This document shows positions 9,238 through 63,078 of a DNA stretch of 64,000 nt, one piece after another. A program made the translations under genes and the position numbers. The notes under the pieces are model-generated. The model ran no database searches and had not been told where the DNA came from. It was given only the letters and a program-made list of their open reading frames with translations. The DNA comes from Amaranthus tricolor (lineage: Eukaryota > Streptophyta > Magnoliopsida > Caryophyllales > Amaranthaceae). Where the stretch lies: NCBI RefSeq assembly GCF_026212465.1, contig NC_080053.1, positions 18,584,608 through 18,648,607 on the forward strand. The letters run 5' to 3'. Each line of letters starts with the position of its first letter. Within the stretch, counting starts at the first letter, position 1.

Positions 9238-10488
9238 TTGGGAAGGGGGAGCCGGTTGTGGAGTGGCTTTTGGGGAGTTTGTAACTCTTCCCTTAATACT
9301 AATTAAGGGGTGTAATTATTTTCGGCATTAAGGAATGAAAATTAAGGATGTTAATTAAGCAAATGACCTTGAACTTTTGACTCACAAAAATCAGAAATTT
9401 TCTTCACATTTTGCTTCAAAATTTTCGGCCAAAGTGTAGTATAGAGAGAACAAGTGAGGAAAATTCTTAATTTGAGTTTTGGGTGTTCAATTGTATTATT
9501 CAATCTTCAATCTTTGAAATTGACCTCGATTCATAAGAGGTTGAGATTCAAAACGCGAAGCGCTTGAGTTGCTTTAATCGTGCTACTAAGGTACACGCTT
9601 AGACCATACATTTGTGATCGGTTATGTAAAGTAATGTTGTACTCATTCTATATTGTGATGTTGTATATCACGTAAGATTTAGACCCCCAAAATAATTTGT
9701 AAAGAGTTTAAATTGGAATTTGAGGATGGTTGTGTAGTTACCCAAATGGGGCTATTTAATTTGGAATTGGAATACCATTGTTATTATTCCCATGGCAGTT
9801 TTGGATCATTACGGTCACCATGGGGGTATGCATACTTATACCTTTGACGACCCGAACAGGACGGGCAACGTCTTAGGTCGAAGGTTGCCTTGGGATTAGC
9901 TCTCCCTTGTGTATTCCTCCGAAATTTGAGAATACTTTGTCGACCCGAACTGGACAGGCAACGACATGTGTTGGGGTTTGGAAAGTCAAACGTGACATTT
10001 AAATAATAGAGCTTTCGCATGCTAGGATGAACTCATTGCTTGTGAGTAACTCATATAATACATTGTATGTTGTCTCTGACGTGTATTGTTATGTGCTTTG
10101 GAACTTGCTATGGTGTTGTCATTCGACGACTAGTAGGTTGATTTGCAGGTGGGGACTAGTGTGTGAGGACTCATCTATTAGATCCTGTAGTCGAGCTGAC
10201 TATCGTGCCGAAAGTTCTATTAGAATTTTATCCACCCGAACTTTATTATTTTTATTTCAGTAAGAACATTTGAACTGGATTGTATTTGGTTTGAAGAAGC
10301 CAGTGGGTTCTCAAGTTGTAATTTTAGATTTCTACTATTTTTTTTTTGTTATCTCGTCATTTCTATTTTATTTCTTTATCACTAGAAAGTTGTCGGTCCT
10401 AGAAGTGGTTTAATTTGATGTCCGATGTGTGGAACGAAATTTATATTTGCATGAATTTATCCGGTTCACCTTTACGTGGACTATTACA
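8968..10488 (+). repeat. 3' LTR of the gypsy element
   Basis: Begins tataacacccg, a one-base decay of the common TGTAACACCCG start, directly after the polypurine tract, and ends ACTATTACA. Length about 1.52 kb. From 9361 it matches 1859-2952. It contains a long TAA microsatellite at 9153-9236. Confidence 0.85.
9153..9236 (+). repeat. (TAA)n microsatellite inside the 3' LTR
   Basis: About 28 uninterrupted trinucleotide units. The matching part of the 5' LTR has been displaced, so it cannot be seen whether both LTRs had it. Confidence 0.95.
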
Positions 10489-25727: not shown

Positions 25728-28700
25728 TAGGCATGGCCACGGTCCGGGTTGGTCTGGTTCCGTTCCGGTTCCATCCGGTTCCGGTTCCATTTGGAACCTG
25801 TCGCGACCGGTTCTGGTTCCGGGCGGTTCCAAACGGTTCCTTGGCGGTTCATGAGGCGGTTCCGGCGGTTCCAACTCACGGGACGGGCGGGTCAGACCAT
25901 CGGTTCCATTTTTATTTTTTCTTTAAATATTTATATAATAAAAAAATACTATAATATTGCGGACGTACCTTTGATGATTACTTGATTATTAGCGAAATTC
26001 ATTGCTTGTCAAGTTGTCATCGTTATTAAAATATTGACTAAAGAGAATGAAAAAAATAAATTAATAAGAAACAAATCAATGATAATGTCGATAAAGATGA
26101 TTAATAAAAAAAGAGGGAGAAAATGGACTTGAACCTAGTACCCAAAGGAATACTAAGCTGCCTACGTATCCTGAAGGAATCAAACCCCACGTAGTTCTTT
26201 GTCATACCTTTTATTTATAGTTGTTGAATGTTGATTTATCGTTGTCCGATTGATCCTATTCGTCTTTGTCATCATCATATGGTTGGTTAGATGCTTCCGC
26301 TGACTCTCCTCCTGACGATGATGCAGATGTATCCATCATCATCCATGGATCATCATCGTCGTCTTGATCATCATCGTTCCTTAGTCCTTGTGTTCGAATC
26401 TCCGCTTGATCCAAATCTTTCTTGCAAACACATATTTGAATACTATGTGGAGCAAGACGAGATCTCTTTTCGTCCAAAACTCTTCTACCTGCACTAAAAG
26501 CAGACTCCGACGCAATTGTTGACGCAGTAATTGCAAAGATATCCTTTGCAATTCTCGATAAAATGGGAAATTTTACAGATTTTTCTTTCCACCACTCTAA
26601 AATATTATAGCTACCTTGGTCAATTTCAAAGTAGTGTTTAAGATAACTATCTAATTCTAAATATGAGGTGGAGGGTGAAGAAGAAGATGATCCTACAAAA
26701 CTATCATCTTGACTCATTATATTAGCTATTACCGAATTATAATAAGAGGGACGTGCCGAAACGCTAGCACGCCTAGACGTATCGCGTTTTGGGTTATATA
26801 CACTAGCGTAATAATCATAGAGTTCTGCTAAATATGTTTTACATGTTTCAACATAATTATGTACATCAGTAGGCGGGCGATCTAACGATTGGTAGTAAAA
26901 TCCTATTACTTTAGTAAGGACTTCAGTTTTAAAACATAGGTCTAAAATTGTTGCAATTCCATAAATATAAGGAAAATCGGTAAAATATGTCTTCCATTTT
27001 TCCATCATATCTGCAAGAATCGGCTTCAAATATGGGTTAGTATCATCATGCGTATGTTTAAGGAGATGATAAAAAATAGTAATACACTCACTTAGTACTA
27101 AGTGAACGTTCGGTTCATAAACATATGAAAAAATCTTAGTTGCGTGGTCATACGCTTCTAATATATTATGTACACCTATAGCTAATTCCCAAGTGTCATC
27201 AGCTATATAGCTATCTGTACACTCACTATACAGTTGTGTTATAACTGGACGATAAGCAATCGCCTTTCTTAATAAATCGTTGGTTGAGCCCCAACGTGCA
27301 GGAGTATCTAATGACAAATACACTTTTTTTAGTTGATATTGGTCACATAATTGTTTATATCGTCTCTTTATCTTTCCAATCCTAAGCCACTTCACTATAT
27401 CTCTAATTGGTTCTAATAAATCGCTTAATTTGTTTTATACCTGCTTGGCAAGATAAGTTAACTATATGCGCACAACAACGTATGTGTAATAAGCTACCCC
27501 CAAGGATAAAACTAAATGCAGGTTCGTTATACAAAAGCAATTATTCTCTTTTGAATAATCCAATTTTGATCTATCCAATGTGCTGTTACACACATATAAG
27601 ATTCTAAATGTGGGGGAGTAGACCAAATGTCAGTTGTTATGCTAACCCTACCATTAAAAGATTTAAACATTTCAACTAATTCATAGCGCATTGATTCATA
27701 TAATTTAATTGTGCGTCTTTTAAGAGTGCTCCTAGGGATTGCTCTATATTGTGGTTGCAAAGTTTTTCTAGTGTAACGCTCGTATGCCCTACTTTCACCA
27801 TGGTTAAATGGAAATTCATCACAAATTACATACTTAGAAAATTCATCAATCATATCATTACGATTATATCTAAAAGGCATACCTGTGCTGGGAATGTCCC
27901 ACTGTGTCTGTCGGCTTCCACTTGTGGTCCCGCTGCCGCTTGCTGCATGAGTTTCTTTTGTGATTCCATGCTTCTTTGCCAAATGTTTGTTAAAAGATCC
28001 CGTACCACCACCTAACACGTATTCACAAAACACAATAAATAAATTTTTATAAAATATGAATATATAATGTATGTATAAAACACTTAAAAAGTATTTACCT
28101 CTGGCGAAACTGTATGAAACTAAGGGCTTTACTCCTTGACTTTCACAAATTTGACAAGTGCATAAGAAAATATCTGGATTGTCGGTTGGTTCTTTTGTGA
28201 AATACGACCACACATGTGAAACAACTCTATCACTAGGAGGTGGCATTGCCGGAAAAGGTTGTCTTACTGGTTCATCTTCATCTAAATAAATAATTTAAAA
28301 TTATAAAACTATAATTAAATAAATAAATAATTTAAAATTTAATTAATTTGAAGAATAAAATTATAAAACTAACCGATAGTTTGGAAATTGACTCGTTTAC
28401 CACGAGCTTGTCTTTGTTGTTGTTCTTGTAGTTGTTCTTCATGTGATCTTTTTGATGACTGTCGAGATACATGTATCCCAATAGGGGTCGTTGGTTTCTC
28501 TTCTTGTTCTTCTTCTTCATCAATTTGTATTTCTCTTTCCACTTCTTCTGCAAAATTATGTAATTCTGGGTCGTACCCTTCTGGATAATTTGGTTCATAA
28601 TTATAATTACTAATCGAAGGTGTTGTTGATACCGACGGAGTAGAAGTGGCCTTTCTTTTGGAGGAGCTGGAACCTCCCAATGATTTTGTCACTTTAGTAA

Positions 28701-29262
28701 CTTTTTTTGAGGCTTTTTTCAAAAATAAAGACATGATTGATAATATTGAAATAATAATAGAATTAAGAAATAAATAAATAAATAATAAACTAATTATGTA
28801 ATTAACTAAATTAAGAAATAATTAAAAGACTAATTATGTAATTAAGAGAATAATTGCGTAATTAAAGAATTAAGTAGAGAGAGTAGGAGAACAGATGAGT
28901 TGTGAATGAAAATGATTGAAAGCGATGAGTATTTATAGGAAAAATGGCAACGGCTATATAACGGCTACTTTTCACGGTTCCGGTTCCATGGAACCGTTGG
29001 GTCGGTTCACCCGGACCGGTCCCGGTTCCGGTTCCATGGAACCGTTGGATCGGTTCAACCGGACCGGTTCCGGTTCCAAACCGCGGTTTTTAGGTCCGGT
29101 TCATGAAGTTTTTTCCGGCGGTTTCATGGTTACGGCAACTTTTTTCCGGCGGTTTCACGGTTCCGCGGTTCGGGGCGGTTCGGAACCTGTCGCAAACGGA
29201 TCCGGTTCCAAGCGGTTCGGCACCGGTTCGGTTCCGGGTAACCCGCCCCGTGGCCATGCCTA
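25728..29262 (-). mobile_element. hAT transposon with intact ends
   Basis: Terminal inverted repeats TAGGCATGGCCACGG at 25728 and its complement CCGTGGCCATGCCTA ending at 29262 are flanked by GTAATCTA on both sides (25720-25727 and 29263-29270), a perfect 8-bp duplication, diagnostic of hAT. Both ends (about 25740-25890 and 28975-29245) are packed with ccggttcc/ggaaccgg words, likely transposase-binding sites. The transposase gene lies on the minus strand with at least two introns and is broken in its third exon. The element sits inside a gypsy LTR, so it is younger than that LTR. Confidence 0.93.
26256..28734 (-). pseudogene. hAT transposase gene, three exons, broken
   Basis: Exon 1 (28734-28374) encodes a basic Ser/Lys-rich N-terminus and an acidic EEEEQEE patch. 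Intron 1 (28373-28282, gttagt...ttag) joins in phase 1 to exon 2 (28281-28099, VVSHVWSYF and CTCQICE), the first half of a BED zinc finger. Intron 2 (28098-28012, gtaaat...ttag) leads to exon 3 with HLAKKHGI, completing the finger's Cys2His2 pattern. Exon 3 carries the RNase H-like core (VSITTDIWSTPPH), then TAA at about 27527, lost sequence and a frameshift near 27430. It recovers as LRIGKIKRRYKQL and ends with the dimerisation motif SESAFSAGRRVLDEKRSRL. It would cut and rejoin the element ends in the nucleus, but is now inactive. Confidence 0.88.
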
Positions 29263-37339: not shown

Positions 37340-37943
37340 TTCTTTGGTTTGTTATTAATATTTGTTTTTGTCTGGCGTTACCCTTCTTTTCTTGCTATTG
37401 GTTTCCTTTATAATATGTTTATGGTATTTTATTTTATTTTTAAGTCTTTTTCAAGTCAATATTCTCAGTAGCCACAACTCAAATTGCCTATATTCTTACA
37501 AAAGTTATTTGCAGTTGAAGTGTTTGAAGAAACTCTATGCAAATCGGGTATTTAAAATTCTACCACTCAACCTAAGATGAGTGTTAGAAAGTAAAATTAC
37601 TTTGGAAAAAATCAGTTATCATTTTTAAATAATCATATTTGAATCCTTATTATTTAATTATATTATTATTGTTATAAATTAAAAAATCACACTATACATT
37701 AATTGATTTAAAATGACAAAATAAAAATAATTTTAAATCCCAAAATTAGTTTATGAAATTCTTCATGCATGTAACGGAGTACGATAACGTTGAAGAATAA
37801 TCCAAACATATCTTCGTAAACAAGAAAATTTTATAGAAGCCGTCACCATATTTCTCTCTCATCGAAACCACTCGTTAAACCTCCCAAAATCCTCACCTAC
37901 CGACTACCAGCAAATCCCCAAACTCGTGCGAGTCAACTCTGCC
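37340..37943 (+). promoter_or_regulatory. Upstream region of the INO80-D-like gene
   Basis: About 600 bp between the hAT end and the start codon: AT-rich, then at 37850-37940 a C/T-rich leader (tttctctctcatcg...) typical of plant 5' untranslated regions. I see no clear TATA box. Confidence 0.4.
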
Positions 37944-40900
37944 ATGGATGAACCTTCGGGTTCAGGACCACCAACAACAACAATCACTAACTCAGAAGAC
38001 GACGAGGACACGATCTTAGCGAAATCAAAGGTCTTAACTCGGAAAGAAGTATTAAAACGTCGAGCGCGTCGACTCACTCGACTCGCCAAGTGTTACCGAG
38101 AGCATTACTGGTCTTTAATGGAGGAAGTGAGAAGAAAACATCGCGAATTTTACTGGAAATATGGTAAGAGTCCTTACATAGAACACAATGGCATCGTTGG
38201 GGAGACAGAATACGACATTGTTCGGAATGGAGTTCTAGAAGATAGTAATGGTGATAACGTTGATGGATGTAATAAATTCGGGTTAAAGTTTGGTGAAAGT
38301 TTCAAATTGTGTGTTTTTTCGGGGTGTAAGGCGAAAGCTATGGCGTTGACGAGCTATTGTGTTGCTCATATTGGGATGGATACCAAGCAATTACTCTATA
38401 AACGCTGCAAATCCCCGCGGACAGTTTTAAGAAGGTTTTAATCTTTGTCTCTTTTATCTGAAGTTTTTCTCTTATTTTTTTTGTTGATTCAATTGTGAAT
38501 TGTTGTTTGAGTTTTGATTTTACTGCTGTATTTTCTCTCGTTTTCTGGTTGTTTATTTGTTTATTTGTTGGAATGATTAATTTGTAGTTGAAGATTTATC
38601 AATGGTAGAAGATTAGACTTTTTCAGTAACTTTAAGTTTAATGTTTTTCTATGGCGAATAATATTTATGGTTGATTATGAATGGAAAATTCAAATTCATA
38701 ACAGATTCTCCTTGGGTTTTCTATAAATTGATTTTCCCACAAATTTAATGTGTGGTTTGGTTTAAATAATTTGTTTTAATGGACCAAATCGGAAAATGTA
38801 GAAAATTTAAGGGCCATAGGTCTATTGATTTTGCATTTTTATAACAAAAATACATTATGAATGAAAATAGGAAAAGCTGTTTTCACACTTGGTAAATGCT
38901 TGTTGTGGGAGTTCATAAAAGTCTAGAGCTATGGTTATTGAACTAGTAAAACTTGTGATTGTGGATGATAAACTGCAGGAATGATTATTGTTTAAATACT
39001 CAATTTGTGGCGTTGGAGGAAAATGTAATAGATGTGTCGATGTGAGGGGGAGATTAGAGACGAGAAAAGAAAGAAACTACTGTTTTTCATTGTAGGGATT
39101 GGAAAGCATTATCATAATAATTATAATAGAGGAATTGAAACTTTGGAAGGAAGTGATGGGAGTATGCCAACCAGAGCTGTTGTGTTTTCTTTCCAACCAC
39201 AATTTAGTAGGAAAAAGCTGTGTCGGTTTCATTAATGAGAAGGGGAGCTTTTTTGCCCTTAGCAACCAGAAGTTACATACTGTAGTTATGTTTCAGAAAA
39301 ATCCAGTTTTTATATACTTATAATTATAATTAAAGACTCTGATTTTATTAAGTTAAAACATTGATTATAGATTTGGGCTTTGGAGCAAAAATTGAAAGAT
39401 TTATGGTATTGAGAAGAATCTCTTGCAATTTGCGCTCATATTGAATAAAGTTGATAAACTATTGTGTCAGGGAAGCAAAAACTCACTGAGTTGAAGTTTT
39501 AGTGCGAAAGATTTAAAACTGATGATGTAGTAAATAGTAATATGCAGCTAGCATACCATTGCTTACAATATTCCTTCTTTGTTTTTGGAGATAGAGAGTG
39601 TGATATGTGTATTACACAGGGTTGGATATGATTACTCTATTTGTGCATATAGTAAGATGGAAGTTTGTTTGACTTTAAGAGAAAGGGTAGGATCACTAAC
39701 TCTTGGGTTTTTGGAGCTTGGCTGTATACTTATGGGCGGGAAAAGAGATTTTGGCATTACTTTTAAGGGCTTCTTCTGAATCCACTCTGTTTGCCCGAGT
39801 ATTTTGATCATAGGCATTTTAACTTGGTAATGTAATTCAGACTTTGGGTAGTTTATTGCAGAGTTTCCTCTTTGTTGTAAGATAAGGATTGATGAATAGA
39901 GTGCATTCACTTCCTTTATATTTCGAGTCAAATTTAGTACGTGAAATCTCTTTGCACATGGTTTAAATTTAATTTTATATTATTACCCCTATTGTTTGAA
40001 ATGGTAGATAACATTGACTTCGATGATCAATGCTTTTTGAGTTTTACGTGTAAGTTGCCGTAATCTACATGACACTACAGTGTGAAAATGTAAAATTTAG
40101 TAGTGTTCTGTAGTATACTTTTGTTGTGGGAAATTTTTTTTTGTTGTTTTCGGAATAATTGGGCTTACAATTTTATACACTACTTTGTTGATCTTTAATT
40201 CCATATATAGCCAACTATTGAACTATCTGCATAGGATTAGCAAATTTATGCACATCTATAATCATAATCCTTGTGTCACCATTATTTTACTTATTCTATT
40301 ATAGGAGATAAATTAATGGTTCATATAGTTTACCCCGTCTTTTGGTAGGTTTTAGCATTATTGTTGTTTTTCTGCTATTGCAATCTGACATTTTTGTTAT
40401 ATAGGAAATGATAAACAAAGGCTTACCTTTGATCTAGGCAAGTAAATTGTGGCTCATTTATCTTGAGATAGGAGGAATAGATTCATCCTAAAGCTTGAAA
40501 TGATGGGATTTGAGTAGGAAACTATTGGATGGTGTCTCTTTATCAATGCGTGTCACACTTATTCAAACTTGTTGCTGTAAAAATTATGTGGATTATTATG
40601 CTCATATTGGAGACAATAGTTTAGAAATCAATGCTTTTGGTTACTTGGTTTTTGATGTAACAATCTCATATAAGAATTTTTGGATATAAGTGATGAGGTC
40701 ATTTACAATAGAGAGGCTAGGGAGGTCATGAGGTGATTCCAAAATTACCAGTTGATTGTTGAAGTTAAAGAGGACTTTTAGATAGGGAACTGTTGTTTTT
40801 GTTGACAATTTAAAGTATGATCAGTTTTTGAATTGATTGATACTATTTATGTTTTTCCAAAAGATTGCCCCATTTGTCTCTAAGTAAGTTTTAACTTTTA

Positions 40901-48780: not shown

Positions 48781-50516
48781 TTCTAAGACCATGAACATTC
48801 AAGAGGATTCACTTTCCTCTTACCACTCTTTTTCCTCCTCTTAACTATCCTCTTGGATGTGTAAAGGAAACAACAATCCTCTTGGCTAAGAGGATTTGTC
48901 ATGGTCCTCTCTATGAAGAGGATGTAGATGGATGCAAGAGGATTGGATAGGACCAAAAGAATGGAGGCATTCCTACATTGGGAGGGAGAAAAAGGAGGAA
49001 AAAAAAAGAAAAAGTATTTGGGCCAAGAGGATTGGTACACTTGGCACAATTTGATTAGTTGAAATTAAGTTTTTTTTTACAACGATATTATTTAAAACGG
49101 TCATAAAAAAAGGTAAAGAAAAATTTCAAAATAATTTCACCAACGGCTCTATTTTTTTTCTCTATAAAATGAACCTAAATTTGCCTATATTTCACGCACT
49201 TTAATTTTTCAGTCTTTTCTCTCTCTTCTATACTACCCATCTAAACTCATTTTCTTGTTGATAATTTCATTCACATTATCATATCCTTATTTATGGATCC
49301 AAATAATCCAAATTTAAATTATGGAAAAAATTTCAACTTTTCATATTACCCGAACCCTCAAAATAACTCAAATACACCCCCTTTTGATCCAAATATCATC
49401 AATAATCCTCAATTTCAAGCTGCTTTACAATGGTTTGGTTCTCAACCTAGACTAATGAATCCAACTTTTCAACAATCTTCTGAAAATAATCCATCATTTC
49501 CCGTTTCCGAACACTTTACTCAACAAATGGAGCATTCACCGGGTGGTGAAGGTTCTTACAATGCTACTCCGACTTCGGAATTAAGAGCAACAAGACATCT
49601 TGATGATATAGAGGAGGTTGATGTTGAAGCAAATCCACGAGAACTCTTTGTCGCAGCTAAAGAGAAAGCCAAACAAAAGGTAGCTTGGAGCGTTGCTGAG
49701 GATAATGCAATTGTTTCGGGCTACATCAATACTGGAGGAGATGTAGTACGAAACACAAACACAAGAAAGGCCGGCTTATGGATGAAAATCTTTAAACATT
49801 GTGAGATTGTTCGAGCTGAGAATCCTAAGGAAATTCTTGAACGGACCTCAAAGTCCATACAACAACGTTGGGATCATATTAACGGTAAAGTTTCAAAATG
49901 GGTGGAGGTTTACAGTTATGAATTATGCCACAAAAAAAGTGGAGAATCAGATGCAAATGTGGAGAAACGTGCCTTTGAAGTTTACCAAAAATCGAATAAC
50001 GGTAAACCATTTCAATTGATGCATTGTTTCAATATTATGAGAAAATTTGACAAATGGAGCCCTGAAATAATGCAAGTACCTTCTGAAAGCGGAGGTAGCA
50101 ATAAAAGATCAGGCCGGATACACCAATTAAGGAAGCGACTACTCCAACTAGACCTGACGGCATAAAGAAGATAAAGCGCAAAGAAAAGGAAGCGGCAACC
50201 TCTTCAATGTCATCAGTAAACCTCGGTTATTTCAATTCATCATTTGAAGAACGTGCTTCCCAGAGAAATGAATTAGGGGAACGTATGCTAAACCTAATAA
50301 AGGAACAAGGTGAAGAAAGAAAAAAGCAAAAGGAGGAGGCGACAAAGTTTAGGATATTAAATATATTGATAGCTAAACCTGTCCTTGATGAAGGTGAAGC
50401 GGAAATGTACCAGAAGCTCAAGGACGAATTCAATAATAAGTTTAATCTTTGATTAATGATTTGAATATTAATATGTATGTTGATGGCTAAATCCATCATT
50501 AAGTCGTTGTTTTTAT
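48781..50516 (+). mobile_element. PIF/Harbinger element, left part
   Basis: Carries the Myb/SANT-type ORF1 protein of Harbinger elements. The subterminal region 48795-49035 has at least six AAGAGGAT/ATCCTCTT words in both orientations. The left end is probably near 48785 (ctaagaccatgaacattc), with a possible TAA target duplication. The partner transposase is at 54975-55667, now on the opposite strand and separated by other elements. The right end lies outside the window. Confidence 0.7.
49293..50452 (+). pseudogene. Harbinger ORF1 (Myb/SANT-like DNA-binding) protein
   Basis: The start MDPNNPNLNYGKNF leads into an Asn/Pro-rich N-terminus (about 110 residues). Next comes a SANT-like trihelix region AWSVAEDNAIVSGYIN, RKAGLWMKIFKHCE, SIQQRWDHINGKVSKWVEVY, with the tryptophans in register. 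The second half (FDKWSPEIMQVPSE) leads to a frameshift at about 50120. The other frame continues with PIKEATTPTRPDGIKKIKRK and the coiled-coil C-terminus (50207-50452, ERMLNLIKEQGEERKKQKEE). Harbinger ORF1 proteins bring the transposase to the nucleus and bind the ends. Only this one-base break keeps it from reading through. Confidence 0.82.
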
Positions 50517-52257
50517 TAGGGGTGTTCAAAACCGGATACCGGGTCGACCCGGTTCCGAAAAACCGGGTACTCGGTTTTCCGGATACTTAAAATTCTATTC
50601 CGGATCCGACCCGGTTAAACCGGGTCGGATACCGGATACCCGGTTTTGTTAAAAACTTTTTTTTTTTTTCATTATTTCTATTAAAAATTTTTTTTTATAT
50701 AATTCAAATACTAAATCTCTATAAATAGTTAAATACTTAACTTAATTTGTCATAAACTATTAAAATACAACCATTAGTTAATTGAAATACAACCATAATT
50801 CCATAAACTCATAATTCCATAAACTAAAAGCAAGCGATTAAAATTTTCAAGTTGAAACTTCAAGCTCCATTAATCATCTTCAACGACGTCAAGCGTTTCA
50901 TCGATTATGACCTCCGGATGCTCCAAAGTTAATGCATTACCTAAACCAAGAGTACGAACAGTCGAACAATATAAGGTTAAAAGAAAAATATTTTTACTCT
51001 TAAATATTAAATAATCAATTTAAAAATAATTAAAAATTTATACTAACCTTTATCAGTTTCATCACAGTTATCATCATAAATTACCATCATCAGTTCATCA
51101 CAATTATCATCATAAATTACCATCATCAGTTCATCACAATTATCATCATAAAACACCAAGCAGGATTTGTACGCAGAAGTAAACCTGCAACTACCTTTAA
51201 AAAAAAATAAAACTAAAAGCCTCCACCAAGGTAAAGGAAAGAATTTGAAGTTCCTAACAGAGTAATATGCTAATGGTTATCCTGGACCTTTCAGTTTCAG
51301 CTAAGATAGTCACAAACTCACAATTGTCTGCAACTATATTCATCCCAAATTCCACACAGAATTCACAATTTACCAATTTACCATCATCAGTTCATCACAA
51401 TTCACAATCAATTACCAATCTAGTGATAAATATCAGAATTCACAATTCACAATCAATTACCAATCACAGTTCATCAAAAACATTGAACAAGTTGAACAAA
51501 TATCAGAATCAAATCTCAAAGATAAATGGCAAAATAAAAATGATAAAGAGCTACCGAAAATCTAGATGGTGGTGGGTAAGAATCCATGTAGATCTTCAAT
51601 AAGTACCGAAAATGGGTAATTAAATCTGAGACAAATTCGAAAATGGCAAAAAAAAAAATTAAATAAGTACCAAATAACTCACCCAATCAGAAAATGGTGA
51701 TGAACTAAAAATGCGAAAATGGTGATGAACTAAAAATAAATACCAAAAAAATTAAATCTATGACAAATTTAAAAAAATGCGAAAAAGCTAAATAAACTTA
51801 CCCAATTAAAGAACTGAAGAACTAAAGAAGAAGAAGATGACGTCTCAACGTGAATGGTAAAGAAGAAGCAAGATGAAGGCGTGAAGAACTGAAGATTGAA
51901 GAAGATGAAGATTGAAGAAGATGACGGCTAGAAGAAAAATGAAGAAGAAGAACTGAACTACTGAAGCAAGAATTAGTGAATGACGGGATAGGCCCAACCC
52001 AAGGTAGATTTAGGGTTTTTAGTTACCTTTTAGAATAAATTTTTTTTTTTTAAAAAAAAAAATTTACAAACCGGATACCGGGTACCCGGTTTTCCAAAAT
52101 TCGTGATCCGTATCCGATCCGAATACCCGGTTTTAAAACCGGGTACCCGACCCGAATTATCCGAATTTGGAAAACCGGGTAATTTACCCGGTTTTAAAAT
52201 CGGAAAGCGGGTTTTTCGGATCGGGTTTTCAAAACCGGATATTTTTGAACACCCCTA
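50517..52257 (-). mobile_element. Non-autonomous hAT copy A (minus orientation)
   Basis: Starts TAGGGGTGTTCAAAACCGG and ends TTTTTGAACACCCCTA, with acccggttt/aaaccgggt words at both ends. It is a near-identical reverse complement of 56062-57832, including a 33-bp tandem repeat region (51060-51150) and the open stretch 51267-51602. The flanking octamers gtttttat (50509-50516) and cataaaag (52258-52265) do not match each other. Read on the minus strand it has a CT-rich leader and a short exon-like end (VIIDETLDVVEDD before TAA), so it is a deletion derivative of an autonomous hAT. The open stretch 51267-51602 is antisense to it. Confidence 0.88.
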
Positions 52258-53551
52258 CATAAAAGCATTGCACACAAGGTGAACTCCTCATTAGCATATG
52301 CATCAAACACTGAAACGCCTTCATCCCACATCTTTCTCAAATCCTCAACGAGAGGTGCAAGATACACATCTATGTCATTGCCAGGTTGTTTAGGACCCGA
52401 GATAAGAAGCGAAAGCATTATGTACTTACGCTTCATACACAACCAAGGTGGCAAATTATAGATCACTAAAAGTACCGGCCAAGTACTATGTTGAGAACTA
52501 ATATTGCCGAATGGGTTCATTCCATCCGTACACAGTCTGAGCCTTAAATTACGAACCTCATCCCCAAAAGTCTTATGCAACCTATCAAAACTCTTCCACT
52601 CCGGAGAATCAGATGGATCTGTGAGCAAGTGACCTTTCTTCACCCTATCTGCATGCCACCTCAAATTTAACGTATCTTTCTTTATAGAAAACAAGCGCTT
52701 GAATCTAGGTATTATTGAAAGATACCACAATACCTTAGCCGGGGGCCCTTTAGCATCCCGAGCCCCTTTACGCTTGTAGCGCGATAACCCACACCTAGGA
52801 CACTCTTCTAAGTTTTTGTTTTCATTCCGATACAACACACAATCATTTGGACACGAATGAATCTTCTGGTACTCTAAGCCGAAAGGACACATGCGCTTTT
52901 TGGCATAATATGTCGACTTTGGAAGTTCATTTCCCTCAGGAAGCATCTCACCTAACGCTTCTAATAACATTGTGAAACTAGTGTCACTCCAATTGAACTT
53001 TGACTTAATGTTGAAAATTGTCAACACTGTTGTTAGTTTGGTGAACTTTGTACATCCAGGGTACAAAGGCTTTTGAGAAGCCTCTGAAAACAAGTCAAAA
53101 ACACGAGGACGTTTTCCTAACTCATCCTCGACTCCCTCCATCATCTCATCAACACGATCCACATCCTCATCGACATTCTCTTCATCTATCTCATAACCAT
53201 CAACATGATCTACTACATCCTCATTGACATCGGCCACATTATTGACGTCCTCAACAACACTTTTCTCTTTGTAAACTCCCTCCTCACCATGCCAAACCCA
53301 AACATGATATTGAGGCCTAAACCCACGTCGAAGTATGTGCTCCCTAAGGATATCAAAACACTATCTACCTTTGATACATTGCCACAACTGACACATGGGC
53401 AATAAAAACCAACTTCCCCCGTCCTAACTTGATGTTCAACCGTAATACTACAAAATTCATATACGCCATCAATAAATTCCGACGATTCAATGCTTCCATA
53501 CATCCAAGAACGATCATTTGTCATCCTAATTAGTGTGATTAATTGATTCAA
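52258..53551 (-). pseudogene. CACTA transposase, N-terminal part
   Basis: Minus-strand gene starting at 53521 (MTNDRSWMYGSIESSEFIDG), the transposase-associated domain with CPCVSCGN. A single-base frameshift near 53350 breaks it, and the other frame continues DILREHILRRGF and HVWVWHGEEGVYKEKS. From 53237 the frame is open again through an acidic linker to the Tnp2 region: MLPEGNELPKSTYYAKK, HSCPNDCVLYRNE, CPRCGLSRYKRK, RWHADRVKKGHLL, LCTDGMNPFGNIS and SGPKQPGNDIDVYLAPLVED. The frame runs to 52258, ...EFTLCAMLL, exactly at the end of hAT copy A. Its continuation is at 57833 on the other strand. Confidence 0.88.
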
Positions 53552-54629
53552 AATAAATTAATACACAACTTTTAAACATATATACTTAACGAACTCTAAC
53601 TAACCATAAAATTAAGTAATAATCATTCATTTAACACTAATTAACCCAAATAATAACACAATGTTTTTTAAACTGTCCAAATGATGTTTATTGTAGTAAC
53701 CATAATTAATATTCATATAAAAACAATAAAAATAAAATCACATTCATAAACTTGGACAACTAATTAACATTCATATCAACAACGCATTCATTTAACCATA
53801 AACAACCCTAATTAAACCTAATTTACAAAATAAAAAAAATTACGATAAATTTAAAACTTAAAAACCACACACATTCATAAATAAAATGAAGAAATTACTT
53901 AAAAATATAACAAAATATGATATATATGATAAATTTAAAACTTAAAAAAAAACAACAACATACACATTCATAAAGTATGACAAATTTAAACCTAATTTAC
54001 AAACCACACACAAACCACATTCACAAATAATTACTAAATATGCAAATAATTAATTAACAAACCACATTTTAACTAAATTACTAAATTCGTGAGTTTTGAA
54101 GATGAATTTTTGTCTTTTATTTTTGTGATATTAATTGATTTTTATGGGTTAATGACGGTAAAAAAAACTAGAACAAAGAGGTGATTTTTAAGGCATCATG
54201 TATGTTATTATTATCATTATGCCCCGTACATCCCATTCACATTAAGTATGATTGAAGAATGATGATGATGATGAACAAGAACACAGTAGAAGAATAGTAG
54301 GGGTTTATGAAAATTCGAAGTTTGATGATGAACAAGAACAGCAGCAAGTTTTTACCTTCAGAAACCGTTTGTGAAGATGAACAGCAACAAGCTAAGAATG
54401 ATGAACAACAACAAATGACCATTTGTGAAGATGAACAGCAACAAGAATGATGAATAACAGCAAATGACCGTTTGTGAAAATGAAGATGAACACAAGAAGC
54501 GAACACAAATCTTGATGCTTAATCTTATCGTTTTTTCAATGAGGAAAAAAGCAAACTGTATAACGTATTTGAGAAAGGATTTGCGAATAAAAAAGAAACT
54601 GGCGGGTTTTAACAAAATTTTGTCCAACG
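53552..54629. other. Noncoding upstream part of the CACTA element
   Basis: AT-rich sequence, then at about 54290-54490 repeated 'gaagatgaacagcaacaag' phrases (four or more copies with variants). No gene is seen. The open stretches at 54237-54667 are made of these repeats. Confidence 0.6.
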
Positions 54630-54974
54630 GTCATTTACTGCGGTTCAAAACAAAACCGAAGCAATAAGAAATTTTGTGAAGGGTTATTTGCTGCGGTTCA
54701 AGCATAACTGGAGCAATTAGCATTTTCATGAAGATATATTTGCTGCGTTTCAATCAAAACCGGAGCAATTAATCAAACTTTGAAGAGTTATTTGCTGCGG
54801 TTATGGAAAACCGGAGCAATTAGTGCAATGTTAAAGGTTATTTGCTGCGGTCAACTGGAAAACCGCGACAATTAGAATATATTTTTTTTTCTGATACATT
54901 TTCCTATTTTTTGCTGCCAATACACAAAAACCGCAGCAAATGATAAGCAGCAAATACATTTTTTTCCGCTAGTG
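54630..54974 (-). mobile_element. CACTA terminal and subterminal region
   Basis: On the minus strand the element starts at 54974 with CACTAGCGGAAAAAAATG, the CACTA-type terminus. Just inside, about six units of the type atttgctgcggtt...aaccggagcaatta stand at 54634, 54686, 54738, 54788, 54838 and 54911 with a spacing near 50 bp. Each is a short palindrome and a probable transposase-binding site. The other end of the element is beyond 60143 and not in the window. Confidence 0.88.
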
Positions 54975-55667
54975 AATTCCTTGATACATCCCTTTCCATC
55001 CAGTGGGACAATTTTTCCATTCCCAATGCATGCAATCGATGCTCCCTATCATACCTGAAAATCCTCTATCTTCCCCTTCTCTAGGAAGACGTTGGAGATC
55101 TTCAGTATTTGGCTTTCGAAGATATTCTGCTGAAAATTGCGCAATTATACCATCAACAAAGTGTGTAAGACACTCCTTCAACGTTGTAGCACCAAGTTTT
55201 AGATACTCATCAATTTGATCAGCTGCACATCCGTATGCTAACATCCTTATGGCTGCAGTGCATTTCTGAAGAGCAGTAGCGCCTTGCCACATACATGCAT
55301 CCGGATTTTGTTGGAAAAAACGATAATGTAAATTGAGGGTATCCACAATGCGAATGAATACATGTTTTTGCATGCGAAACCTACGACGAAATCGACGTTC
55401 GTCGTATAGTGGTCGGTTATTGAAGTAGTCAGCTATCAAACGGTCGTTTGCTGACTCTCGATCTCTAGAAATATAAGTTCTCTTCTTTCTTGGACGTGAA
55501 CCCTCATTTCCATCTCCTTCGACGGTGGAGTTAACAATGTATCTTACTGCATCCTCTACCACTTGTATTTCACGACTCTCTTCGACAAAATCTATCAACA
55601 TATAGTCATAGATTTCATCCTCACTTGAACTAAAAGAACTAGAATCAAGGTTCATCTCGAAATTCAT
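54975..55667 (-). pseudogene. PIF/Harbinger transposase, N-terminal part
   Basis: Likely start MNFEMNLDSSSFSSSEDE at 55667, then KKRTYISRDRESANDRLIAD, FRRRFRMQKHVFIRIVD, CTAAIRMLAYGCAADQIDEY and GMIGSIDCMHWEWKNCPTGW, the first catalytic aspartate of the DDE_4 nuclease (I-D-C-x-H). It breaks off at 54975 after ...KGMYQGI because a CACTA element starts there. The remaining two thirds of the catalytic domain, with the second Asp and the Glu, must lie on the far side of that element, outside the window. The open frame extends upstream to 55883, but that part is repetitive. Confidence 0.86.
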
Positions 55668-56061
55668 TTTGTGATGATATGTAAGATTATGATGAAAATG
55701 ATATGTGAATAGGAGATGTTTCAATGCATAAAACTGATATGAAGTGACAAGTCCCTGGTAAAATACTTTAATATTGATGGGAGATGTTTCAATGCATGAA
55801 TTGTTATGAAGTGACAAGTCCTGATATGAATGACAAGTCCCTAGTGAAATATTTTCATATTGATAGGTGATATTACAATGCATGAAATGATATGAAGTGA
55901 CAAGTCCTGATATGAATTAACAAGTCTCTGGTGAAATACTTCACTAAAGGGACAATAATATTAAAAGCAGATGCTACTGAAAATACAAATAACTTACTTA
56001 GTAAATACAAATTACAATGACGTTAATAAAACTGAAAAACCACTCTTAACTAAATAAAAAC
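55668..56061. repeat. Imperfect tandem repeats upstream of the Harbinger transposase
   Basis: Three blocks starting caatgcat at 55722, 55790 and 55876 each contain atgaagtgacaagtcc. Periods are about 68 and 86 bp. No gene. Confidence 0.65.
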
Positions 56062-57832
56062 TAGGGGTGTTCAAAAATATCCGGTTTTGAAAACCCGATC
56101 CGAAAAACCCGCTTTCCGATTTTAAAACCGGGTAAATTACCCGGTTTTCCAAATTCGGATAATTCGGGTCGGGTACCCGGTTTTAAAACCGGGTATTCGG
56201 ATCGGATACGGATCACGAATTTTGGAAAACCGGGTACCCGGTATCCGGTTTGTAAATTTTTTTTTTTTAAAAAAAAAAATTTATTCTAATAGGTAACTAA
56301 AAACCCTAAATCTACCTTGGGTTGGGCCTATCCCGTCATTCACTAATTCTTGCTTCAGTAGTTCAGTTCTTCTTCTTCATTTTTCTTCTAGTCGTCATCT
56401 TCTTCAATCTTCATCTTCTTCAATCTTCAGTTCTTCACGCCTTCATCTTGCTTCTTCTTTACCATTCATGTTGAGACGTCATCTTCTTCTTCTTTAGTTC
56501 TTCAGTTCTTTAATTGGGTAAGTTTATTTAGCTTTTTTCGCATTTTTTAAAATTTGTCATAGATTTAATTTTTTTGGTATTTATTTTTAGTTCATCACCA
56601 TTTTCGCATTTTTAGTTCATCACCATGTTCTGATTGGGTGAGTTATTTGGTACTTATTTAATTTTTTTTTTGCCACTTTCGAATTTGTCTCAGATTTAAT
56701 TACCCATTTTCGGTACTTATTGAAGATCTACATGGATTCTTACCCACCACCATCTAGATTTTCGGTAGCTCTTTATCATTTTTATTTTGCCATTTATCTT
56801 TGAGATTTGATTCTGATATTTGTTCAACTTGTTCAATGTTTTTGATGAACTGTGATTGGTAATTGATTGTGAATTATGAATTCTGATATTTATCACTAGA
56901 TTGGTAATTGATTGTGAATTGTGATGAACTGATGATGGTAAATTGGTAAATTGTGAATTCTGTGTGGAATCTGGGATGAATATAGTTGCAGACAATTGTG
57001 AGTTTGTGACTATCTTAGCTGAAACTGAAAGGTCCAGGATAACCATTAGCATATTACTCTGTTAGGAACTTCAAATGCTTTCCTTTACCTTGGTGGAGGC
57101 TTTTAGTTTTATTTTTTTTTAAAGGTAGTTGCAGGTTTACTTCTACGTACAAATCATGCTTGGTGTTTTATGATGATAATTGTGATGAACTGATGATGGT
57201 AATTTATGATGATAATTGTGATGAACTGATGATGGTAATTTATGATGATAACTGTGATGAAACTGATAAAGGTTAGTATAAATTTTTAATTATTTTTCAA
57301 TTGATTATTTAATATTTAAGAGTAAAAATATTTTTCTTTTAACCTTATATTGTTCGACTGCTCGTGCTCTTGGTTTAGGTAATGCATTAACTTTGGAGCA
57401 TCCGGAGGTCATAATCGATGAAACGCTTGACGTCGTTGAAGATGATTAATGGAGCTTGAAGTTTCAACTTAAAAATTTTAATCGCTTGCTTTTAGTTTAT
57501 GGAATTATGAGTTTATGGAATTATGGTTGTATTTCAATTAACTAATGGTTGTATTTTAATAGTTTATGACAAATTAAATTAAGTATTTAACTATTTATAG
57601 AGATTTAGTATTTGAATTATATAAAAAAAAATTTTAAATAGAAATAATGAAAAAAAAGAAGTTTTTAACAAAACCGGGTATCCAGTATCCGACCCGGTTT
57701 AACCGGGTACCCGAAATCCGGGTACCCGGTTTAACCGGGTCGGATCCGGAATAGAATTTTAAGTATCCGGAAAACCGGGTACCCGGTTTTTCGGAACCGG
57801 GTCGACCCGGTATCCGGTTTTGAACACCCCTA
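56062..57832 (+). mobile_element. Non-autonomous hAT copy B (plus orientation)
   Basis: Starts TAGGGGTGTTCAAAAATATCC and ends GGTTTTGAACACCCCTA. It is a near-identical reverse complement of copy A, about 30 bp longer because of one extra acccggtttaaccggg-type block near 57690-57735. The flanks are ataaaaac (56054-56061) and cttttatg (57833-57840), which do not match each other but are the complements of the flanks of copy A. The exon-like end VIIDETLDVVEDD lies at about 57405-57448. Confidence 0.88.
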
Positions 57833-59894
57833 CTTTTATGCACCGTTAATGATTTTCCGGCATATGGCAACTTATCGGGGTATAAGAACAAAGGGAAGAA
57901 AGCATGCCCAATATGTATCGATGACATGGAATCCACGTGGATTCCTAAGTGCAAACACGTTTTCATGCACCATCGAAAGTTCCTCCCAGAGACCACCAAT
58001 ATCGTAAGAAGAAGAAGTTGTTCAACGGGGAGGTTGAGGACCGTGTAGCTCGTCGACCGTTGACCGGTTATGAGGTTTATGAACAGGTTAAGGGAGTTGA
58101 GACTGTATTTGGTAAAACGGGGCAAGTGCAAGGGGGTGAAGACCGATTATGGAAAAAAGAATCAATCTTTTGGAAGCTTCCATATTGGAAAGATCTACAG
58201 GTTAGGCATTGTCTTGACGTTATGCATATAGAGAAAAATGTATGCGATGCCATACTCGGGACTCTCATGAACATTCCGGGTAAGACAAAGGATGTTAGGG
58301 CCGTGCGAGATTGGTTTGAATGTAAGGGTCTTTGTCCGGAGTTGTGGGCACATGTTAAGGTGAGTAAGAAAAGAAATAGAGCTGATGAAGTTGGTGGCAG
58401 TAAGAAGAAGATGAGTAATGACAAAGTTTATTTGCCTCCAGCTTGCTACACATTGTCCAAAGCAGAGAAGCGGACATTTTGTGAGTGTTTGTATGGCATT
58501 AAGGTTCCGTCTGGGTACTCATCCAACATGAAGAGATTTGTGAGCCTAAATGGTGAGCTGAAGTTGGGAAGCATGAAATCTCACGATTGCCATGTAATGA
58601 TGCAAGTGTTCTTACCAATTGCAATTCGTGGAATACTGCCAAAACATGTGAGATATGCTATTACCGAGCTATGTTCGTACTTCGACACAATTTGTAGTAA
58701 AGTTCTTGATCCCTTTAAACTTGATGCACTTCAACTCGACGTGATTTTGACTTTATGCAAGTTTGAGATGTATTTTCCACCTTCTTTCTTTGACATAGTG
58801 GTTCATCTTATTGTCCATCTCATTCGTGAGATTAAGCTTTTGGGTCCAGTTTTTTTAAGGTGGTGTTATCCTTTTGAAAGACACATGGGTGTTTTACAAA
58901 ATAAGGTGAGGAATCCAGCACAACCCGAGGGGAGTATGATTCAAGGCACTATGAGCGATGAAATTAGTAACTTTATAGCCGAGTATTTGGCCATGGCAAA
59001 GCCTATTGGACTTCCCACCTCTAGACATGAAGGAAGGCTTGAGGGAAAAGGAACAATTGACTCTAAATCGGTCACACCTCCTCGAGAAAGCCTTCTACAA
59101 GCACACTTGTATGTGTTGCATCATATTCCGAAAGTTCATCCTTTTTTGAGTGAGCATTTTGATATATTGCGCGCAAAACATCCTTCTAAAGGGGATAGGG
59201 CATTGATGCAGTTGCATAAAAAGATGTTTATTAATTGGTTTCGTAATCGAGTAATATGCGAAGAACTCAAGGGTGTATCCGAAATTGTTAAGTGGTTAGC
59301 TTTTGGTCCTCGTGATGATGTCAACAAATATGAGGGTTACGATGTCAATGGCTTCACATTTTGGACTGAGGGTCAAGAAAAGAAGTCATCGTATCTACAG
59401 AATAGTGGGGTTTCTATTTTGGCGTCATCTACATTTTACGCAAGTGCGAAGGATCAAGCGCCGGTTGATGCTAAATTGGTATACTACGGGCGGGTACATG
59501 AAATATGGGAGCTTGACTACTCTGCTTTCAATATTGGTCTGTTCAAATGTAAGTGGGTAGATAACAATCAACGATGCATAAAAAAAGACGACCCTTGTGG
59601 ATTCACTCTTGTAGACTTAACTCGTTTGCGTGATAGTGTGGAGCCATTCACACTAGCCACACAAGCCAAGCAAGTATTCTACATTGTAGACCCGTCTGAT
59701 AAAAAATGGTCTATTGTTGTACCTAAAAAAGAAGCATCCTTGGTATAGGTGATGTTGAGGATGAGGAAGAATATGAAGCTTTTGAAGACTCCCCTCCCTT
59801 TATCAATCCAAAATCAGTGGATCAAGATGATGTAGATGATGTAGATGTTGGTTATATGCGTGTAGATCACACGGAAGGAATACATTTGAATTAA
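57833..59894 (+). pseudogene. CACTA transposase, C-terminal part
   Basis: It continues the frame broken off at 52258: CTVNDFPAYGNLSGYKNKGK, CPICIDDMES, then a frameshift near 57990. From there it is open for about 585 codons: LTGYEVYEQVKG, YWKDLQVRHCLDVMHIEKNV, LPPACYTLSKAEKRTFCE, the DUF4218 region (SYFDTICSKVLDP, FFDIVVHLIVHLIREI, RWCYPFERHMGVLQNKVRNP) and the DUF4216 region (WELDYSAFNIGLFKCKWVDN, GFTLVDLTRLRDS). A small frame slip near 59740 separates the final acidic tail GDVEDEEEYEAFED, ending TAA at 59892. Its cut-and-paste activity would act on CACTA ends, but the split and frameshifts disable it. Confidence 0.9.

Positions 59895-60106: not shown

Positions 60107-60143
<37 letters not shown>
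59895..60143 (+). other. CACTA 3' region and a 35-G homopolymer
   Basis: A possible intron gtatga...atgtag (59907-60078) precedes a short stretch whose translation (TQLGTGTATRG) looks like the start of a CACTA second-gene exon. This is followed by 35 consecutive G (60109-60143), directly before a TG that could start the next LTR. Confidence 0.5.
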
Positions 60144-62807: not shown

Positions 62808-63078
62808 TGTAATACCCCAGATTTAGCTTGAAAAAAGATTAATAGACTACTCATAACAACAAGGTGCATCTTCTTTTCTTGGGAGCCCATTTGCTAAGAA
62901 CTCCACAGTTAAGCGTGCTTGGTGGGGAGCAATCTTAGGATGGGTGACCTCCTGGGAAGTTTTCCCGGGTGCGCACGAGTGAGGCCAAAGTGCGCTGGAA
63001 AGACTTGTGTTGATTTGTGGGGCTAGTTTACACTCTCCAAGAGTAGTCACCAGCGGTCCGAGGGGTCGGGGTGTTACA
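62808..63078 (+). mobile_element. Cassandra (TRIM) solo LTR
   Basis: The 271-bp stretch starts TGTAATACCCC, ends GGGGTGTTACA and is bounded by GCTTC at 62803-62807 and 63079-63083, a perfect 5-bp TSD. It contains a 5S rRNA-like segment, the hallmark of the Cassandra family. No internal domain follows, so it is a solo LTR. It interrupts the minus-strand ORF of the SIRE-like element and is thus the youngest insertion here. Confidence 0.93.
62881..62972 (+). other. 5S rRNA-like segment in the Cassandra LTR
   Basis: gaactccacagttaagcgtg, cttggtggggagcaatctta and ggatgggtgacctcctggga match the 3' two thirds of plant 5S rRNA with some changes. The segment includes the box C region of the RNA polymerase III internal promoter (ggatgggtgacc...). 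It is part of an LTR and not a functional 5S gene: the 5' part is divergent and the 3' end continues into LTR sequence. Confidence 0.92.

What the first reader, a model, noticed from the sequence alone, without database searches (positions are those of the whole stretch)
50509..57840. A 3.8-kb segment inverted between two opposite hAT copies, readable from swapped target-site duplications
Seen: copy A (50517-52257) is flanked by gtttttat and cataaaag; copy B (56062-57832), its reverse complement, by ataaaaac and cttttatg. Neither pair matches within a copy, but left-of-B is the complement of left-of-A and right-of-A is the complement of right-of-B. Known: hAT insertions make identical 8-bp duplications. 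Turning 52258-56061 round restores gtttttat/gtttttat and cttttatg/cttttatg. It also joins the CACTA transposase in frame across copy B (...CAMLL to CTVNDFPAYG...) and puts the Harbinger transposase on the same strand as its ORF1. Inference: homologous recombination between the inverted copies inverted the segment. An assembly flip between near-identical repeats would look the same.
Basis: partly seen in the sequence, partly recalled or inferred. Interest (0 to 1): 0.92.

Follow-up and report, generated by a model that had tools for sequence, protein, structure and literature searches.

The report
Small inversion between two mirrored transposons
In amaranth-like plant DNA, a 3.8-kb stretch of old transposon sequence has been flipped between two mirror-image transposon copies, and the swapped 8-letter scars beside the copies plus a cut gene record the flip; this is a clean example of an already known process.

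Summary
Copies A (50517-52257) and B (56062-57832, reverse) are 98.8% identical over 1738 aligned columns. Their four 8-bp flanks match across copies (8/8 and 8/8), not within a copy (2/8 and 2/8). An independent test agrees. The CACTA transposase domain Transposase_21 is split: profile positions 3-125 lie inside the segment on the minus strand; 127-158 start at the first complete codon beyond B's right flank on the plus strand. In 64 of 64 relatives whose best alignments reach the junction from both sides, the pieces abut with exactly one residue between. So 52258-56061 is inverted relative to an ancestral nest: Harbinger <- hAT A, Harbinger <- CACTA <- hAT B. Ectopic recombination is the likeliest cause. 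Telling them apart needs other family copies, and the genome search did not complete. An assembly flip is unlikely if the window comes from the published HiFi assembly of Amaranthus tricolor; that source was not verified. Exchanged duplications at TE-mediated inversions are published. New member of a known kind; modest interest.

The parts
50509..50516 (+). 8-bp flank t1 GTTTTTAT, left of copy A; partner is 56054-56061 reversed
50517..52257 (+). non-autonomous hAT-like copy A, 1741 bp, termini TAGGGGTGTTCAAAA
52258..52265 (+). 8-bp flank CATAAAAG (reverse complement of t2) right of copy A; partner is 57833-57840
52258..56061 (-). inverted segment, 3804 bp; the coding pieces identified in it read on the minus strand
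52260..53360 (-). CACTA TNP2-type transposase, upstream piece (Transposase_21 profile positions 3-125 of 213; sub-threshold match to the end of Transpos_assoc)
   Evidence: Transposase_21 E 1.5e-56
53384..53524 (-). start of the same transposase (Transpos_assoc profile positions 1-42 of 74)
   Evidence: E 2.5e-6, 28.0 bits against a cut-off of 27.7
54957..54974 (-). CACTA terminus CACTAGCGGAAAAAAATG, reading away from 54974
54643..54802 (.). three subterminal repeats at 52-bp spacing behind the CACTA terminus (71-77% alike)
54978..55667 (-). PIF/Harbinger-type transposase, N-terminal piece, cut by the CACTA terminus (Plant_tran profile positions 2-50 of 205)
   Evidence: E 8.7e-19
56054..56061 (-). 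8-bp flank ATAAAAAC (reverse complement of t1) left of copy B
56062..57832 (-). non-autonomous hAT-like copy B, 1771 bp, opposite orientation to A
57833..57840 (+). 8-bp flank t2 CTTTTATG right of copy B
57842..59745 (+). CACTA TNP2-type transposase, downstream pieces (Transposase_21 127-158, 31.4 bits; then 173-211, 19.2 bits and below the 28.6 cut-off; DUF4218; DUF4216); frame breaks near 57990
49293..50449 (+). PIF/Harbinger ORF1-type coding pieces (Myb/SANT-like, label recalled)
   Evidence: NAM-associated E 0.05, below cut-off; 2 of 6 relatives carry NAM-associated

Best explanation
A CACTA transposon inserted into the transposase gene of a PIF/Harbinger element. Two copies of one small non-autonomous hAT-like family then inserted in opposite orientation, A between the Harbinger ORF1 and transposase, B inside the CACTA transposase gene, each making a normal 8-bp duplication. 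Ectopic homologous recombination (crossover, or an equivalent repair event) between A and B then inverted the 3804 bp between them, carrying one duplication of each copy to the other breakpoint and splitting the CACTA gene between strands. Shown: the geometry, the exchanged duplications and the collinearity of the split gene. Inferred: the order of the insertions in part, and that recombination, not transposase, did it.
For: Exchanged duplications 8/8 and 8/8 with own-flank 2/8 and 2/8. The coding breakpoint closes without loss or gain: Transposase_21 runs 3-125 in one piece and from 127 in the other, one codon being completed across the junction, and 64 of 64 informative relatives have exactly one residue between the pieces. 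CACTA terminus, transposase start, upstream and downstream pieces become collinear when the segment is turned. A and B have 98.8% identity with identical runs of 206 and 199 bp even now, ample homology for recombination. A different hAT in the same window, 25728-29262, has matching 8-bp duplications (GTAATCTA), a single local control. PMC8225341 states that recombination between inverted TEs leaves copies with usually non-identical duplications (passage).
Against: The diagnostic chimeric structure of A and B could not be tested: no third family copy was available (8 unanswered genome searches; no matches). Hybrid-element insertion gives the same flanks from one insertion and one event, so recombination is not the shorter history. 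No orthologous uninverted locus was seen. No reads were seen. The non-coding breakpoint rests on its 8-bp duplication alone.
Confidence: 0.7

Rival explanations
1. Hybrid-element insertion (sister-chromatid alternative transposition). One hAT copy stood at one site. Just after replication, transposase cut its 5' end on one sister and its 3' end on the other and inserted this hybrid at the second site 3.8 kb away, inverting the DNA between. Both copies then descend from one element and the 1.2% divergence dates the inversion.
For: The symbolic product is L t1 E t2' M' t1' E' t2 R, identical to the observed order. PMC2775673 section 10 says this model's outcome is strikingly similar to ectopic recombination except that copies are identical rather than chimeric. 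It explains with one insertion and one event why two copies of one family lie 3.8 kb apart in opposite orientation. Alternative transposition of hAT Ac/Ds in maize is documented, and both copies keep perfect termini.
Against: The passages seen list bridges, breaks, inverted duplications, deletions and composite insertions as products of sister-chromatid transposition of maize Ac/Ds, not a simple inversion. For Ac/Ds, strand-specific methylation is thought to leave only one sister of a simple element competent (recalled, no call). No autonomous partner with these termini was found in the window: of 7 terminus matches with up to 3 mismatches, 4 are the ends of A and B and 3 are at chance level; the hAT at 25728-29262 has different termini.
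Confidence: 0.18
2. Assembly flip between the near-identical inverted copies; the plant has the uninverted order.
Against: The unit to be spanned is 7.3 kb. The host gene at 37794 matches A. tricolor at 100% over 76% of the query. The published cv. Red assembly was built from HiFi reads of N50 14 kb, scaffolded with nanopore reads of N50 48 kb, from a plant of low heterozygosity. A and B differ at 21 bases and 4 indels, with no identical run above 206 bp. That the window comes from this assembly is not verified.
Confidence: 0.07
3. Chance or unrelated damage to the duplications of two independent insertions, no inversion.
For: AT-rich 8-mers recur in this window: GTTTTTAT 10 times and CATAAAAG 8 times on both strands together.
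Against: Joint chance about 1e-9 on the composition model, and the independent split of Transposase_21 across strands with exact abutment.
Confidence: 0.01

Closest known systems
Galileo-mediated inversions of Drosophila buzzatii, 2z3 above all (PMC2775673; abstract, passages and section 10 part 1 of 2 seen)
   Same: Two DNA-transposon copies in opposite orientation at the breakpoints with exchanged target-site duplications and no gain or loss at the breakpoints
   Different: Natural polymorphic chromosomal inversions by a P-superfamily element; for 2z3 the chimerism of the copies and non-inverted chromosomes were shown, here neither. Here 3.8 kb, hAT-like, inside nested transposons
Human/chimpanzee retrotransposon recombination-mediated inversions (PMC2603318; one passage seen)
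   Same: Mismatched target-site duplications used to tell ancestral from inverted state
   Different: LINE-1 and Alu elements; species comparison done there
Alternative transposition of maize Ac/Ds, reversed-ends and sister-chromatid (PMC8225341 and PMC3744419; passages seen)
   Same: hAT elements, 8-bp duplications; reversed-ends inversions have TEs at each breakpoint
   Different: Reversed-ends inversions have matching new duplications at the breakpoints and arise from directly oriented copies; here copies are inverted and duplications exchanged
Arabidopsis chromosome 4 knob inversion with VANDAL5 (seen only as described in passages of PMC12312487; the original, PMC5113708, is not held)
   Same: Plant inversion ascribed to a DNA transposon
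   Different: VANDAL element, paracentric inversion; the mechanism proposed there is aberrant transposition
hAT-derived MITEs at Atlantic cod inversion breakpoints (PMC12368964; passages seen)
   Same: Non-autonomous hAT copies as proposed recombination substrates
   Different: Tandem MITE insertions; the phrase 'target site duplication' occurs 0 times in its main text (the abbreviation was not searched)

Membership tests
Inversion by ectopic recombination between TE copies | Two homologous copies in opposite orientation at the two breakpoints | tested here: met
Inversion by ectopic recombination between TE copies | Target-site duplications exchanged between the copies | tested here: met
   8/8 and 8/8 across copies, 2/8 and 2/8 within
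Inversion by ectopic recombination between TE copies | No deletion or duplication at the breakpoints | tested here: met
   coding breakpoint: exactly one residue between pieces in 64 of 64 informative relatives; the other breakpoint is non-coding and was judged by the duplication alone
Inversion by ectopic recombination between TE copies | Both copies chimeric | not testable with these tools
   no third copy; genome search unanswered
Inversion by ectopic recombination between TE copies | Uninverted order in an orthologous locus | tested here: inconclusive
   the gene is contiguous in relatives of the transposase, but these are family members, not the orthologous locus
Hybrid-element insertion at one site | Exchanged duplications and inverted copies | tested here: met
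Hybrid-element insertion at one site | The two copies are identical by descent from the event, not chimeric | not testable with these tools
   21 substitutions in 1738 columns could all be later or partly earlier
hAT superfamily, non-autonomous | Short terminal inverted repeats | tested here: met
   15-bp perfect termini at all four ends
hAT superfamily, non-autonomous | 8-bp target-site duplication | tested here: met
   met only across copies, that is after turning the segment
hAT superfamily, non-autonomous | Mobilised by a hAT transposase of an identified autonomous partner | tested here: inconclusive
   no ORF of 120 aa or more lies wholly inside A or B; the hAT at 25728-29262 has different termini; the genome could not be searched
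CACTA (En/Spm) | CACTA terminus and TNP2-type transposase | tested here: met
CACTA (En/Spm) | 3-bp target-site duplication at both ends | not testable with these tools
   the distal end was not found between 49000 and 64000 with up to one mismatch
PIF/Harbinger | Transposase with Plant_tran domain plus separate ORF1 | tested here: met
   transposase domain clear but truncated at position 50 of 205 by the CACTA terminus; ORF1 by relatives, its own Pfam match being below cut-off

The most novel reading that the evidence does not exclude
The inversion was made in one step by hAT transposase acting on the two sister copies of a single element (hybrid-element insertion). The locus would then be a natural plant record of sister-chromatid alternative transposition, and the A/B divergence would date it. 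Recalled plant rates of 6.5e-9 to 1.3e-8 per site per year would put it at about 0.5 to 0.9 million years.
Probability: 0.18. Interest if true: 0.45.

Novelty: new member of a known kind. Interest (0 to 1): 0.27.

Why it matters
The history can be read from one sequence without an outgroup locus: swapped duplications and an interrupted gene give the same answer independently. That makes it a useful worked example for scanning assemblies for TE-mediated micro-inversions by mismatched duplications. It also shows that swapped duplications alone do not separate recombination from hybrid-element transposition; copy chimerism does. The inverted segment consists of transposon pieces as far as identified, and no function is evident.

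Tried and rejected
Reversed-ends transposition of two directly oriented copies: rejected, because A and B are in opposite orientation and duplications are exchanged, whereas that route gives matching new duplications.

The whole 50517-57832 block as one composite transposon: its outer flanks GTTTTTAT and CTTTTATG do not match.

The hAT at 25728-29262 as autonomous partner of A and B: termini differ (TAGGCATGGCC versus TAGGGGTGTTC).

CACTA distal end and its 3-bp duplication: not found from 49000 to the window end with up to one mismatch. Rest of the Harbinger transposase: a six-frame scan with three motifs recalled from memory gave nothing, which is weak. A G run at 60109-60143 and further repeat-like sequence follow, and the element may continue beyond the window.

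Other copies of the hAT-like family: exact patterns in viral contigs and genome contigs gave 0 matches, as expected for a plant repeat. The genome search did not complete.

Dating of the inversion: not claimed, since the A/B divergence includes any pre-inversion divergence under recombination.

Literature: searches were for the kind of event, and for the A. tricolor assembly. No search was made for this particular locus, so no claim is made that it is or is not in print.

Full report
Observation. Copy A, 50517-52257, has GTTTTTAT on its left and CATAAAAG on its right. Copy B, 56062-57832, in opposite orientation, has ATAAAAAC on its left and CTTTTATG on its right. Within each copy the flanks agree at 2 of 8 positions; across copies both pairs agree at 8 of 8 as reverse complements. 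All four ends carry the same 15-bp terminus. Random pairs of 8-mers in this window are reverse complements in 104 of 2,000,000 draws, and the composition model gives about 1e-9 for both pairs together. Another hAT element in the window, 25728-29262, with hAT transposase domains between its ends, has ordinary matching duplications GTAATCTA/GTAATCTA; it is a single local control.

Independent test by the interrupted gene. The segment between the copies holds, on its minus strand, the beginning of a CACTA TNP2-type transposase. The plus strand right of B holds the rest. Scanned apart, the first piece matches Transposase_21 profile positions 3-125 up to its last residue, and the second matches from position 127 at its first residue; the one codon between is completed across the junction. 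A third stretch, after a frame break, matches positions 173-211 below the family's cut-off. Against the 120 listed relatives of the downstream piece (of 2978 found), 77 were hit by both pieces. Taking the best alignment of each piece, 64 of these reach the junction from both sides (piece 1 to residue 362 or later of 367, piece 2 from residue 5 or earlier, the few missing residues extrapolated), and in all 64 exactly one residue lies between. The other 13 were dropped because one best alignment stops short or lies elsewhere (P0004, P0014, P0027, P0037, P0054, P0059, P0079, P0083, P0086, P0087, P0090, P0096, P0108); 43 of 120 had no hit for at least one piece. So the two ends, now 5.6 kb apart (52258 and 57841) and on opposite strands, were one contiguous stretch. 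Turning 52258-56061 restores it. The gene is not otherwise intact: its frame breaks again near 57990.

The nest. The CACTA terminus CACTAGCGGAAAAAAATG ends at 54974 on the minus strand, with three repeats at 52-bp spacing behind it (54643-54802). It cuts a PIF/Harbinger-type transposase at Plant_tran position 50 of 205. The Harbinger ORF1-type gene lies left of A on the plus strand: Pfam gives only a weak match (E 0.05, below cut-off), but 2 of 6 relatives carry the NAM-associated domain, and its best named relative (57% identity over 84%) is a quinoa protein called glutathione S-transferase T3-like. With the segment turned, ORF1 and transposase lie on one strand and the CACTA parts are collinear. 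The CACTA distal end and the rest of the Harbinger transposase were not found in the window, so those duplications could not be tested.

Mechanism. Ectopic recombination between two opposite copies predicts exchanged duplications, no loss at the breakpoints and chimeric copies (PMC2775673; PMC8225341). The first two are met, the second fully only at the coding breakpoint; the third could not be tested. A symbolic check gives the same order L t1 E t2' M' t1' E' t2 R for both models, and PMC2775673 says the two differ in whether the copies are chimeric. I favour recombination: the copies offer runs of 206 and 199 identical bases even now, the passages seen on sister-chromatid transposition of Ac/Ds name other products, and I recall that a simple Ac/Ds element is usually competent on only one sister. 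This is a preference, not proof; the hybrid model needs fewer events. The A/B divergence (21 substitutions in 1738 columns, K 0.0122, 4 indels) dates the event only under the hybrid model.

Assembly. The host gene at 37794-38438 matches an Amaranthus tricolor protein at 100% over 76% of the query. The published A. tricolor cv. Red assembly was built from HiFi reads of N50 14 kb and scaffolded with nanopore reads of N50 48 kb, from a plant of low heterozygosity (PMC9847342, passages). If the window is from it, an assembly flip over a 7.3-kb unit is unlikely. That the window is from that assembly was not verified, and no reads were seen.

Verdict. A well-recorded micro-inversion within nested transposons, most likely by ectopic recombination. 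The kind of event and its diagnostic are published in Drosophila and primates, and alternative transposition by hAT elements in maize. It is a tidy new member of a known kind.

Noticed in passing
25728-29262: hAT element of 3535 bp with perfect 11-bp termini TAGGCATGGCC, matching 8-bp duplications GTAATCTA, and hAT dimerisation and RNase-H-like domains on the minus strand.
   Followed up: partly
57709-57740 in B, absent after 50608 in A: 32-bp indel equal to one 17-bp palindromic repeat plus its 15-bp spacer, as expected of deletion or duplication between short direct repeats.
   Followed up: partly
60109-60143: Run of 35 G at the edge of repeat-like sequence right of the CACTA gene; may be real or a sequencing problem.
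   Followed up: no
62812-63078: Possible short element with near-matching ends CTGTAATACCCC and GGGGTGTTACAG, seen by eye.
   Followed up: no
1859-2952 and 9361-10488: Direct repeats about 7.5 kb apart, 91-98% identical, with reverse transcriptase and RNase H pieces between them; probably the long terminal repeats of a damaged retrotransposon.
   Followed up: no
37794-38438: Host gene with a C3Hc3H zinc-finger domain; some relatives are named KAT8 regulatory NSL complex subunit 2 or INO80 complex subunit D; used to place the host near Amaranthus tricolor.
   Followed up: partly
55745-55916: Two tandem 86-bp repeats (88% alike) upstream of the Harbinger transposase piece.
   Followed up: no
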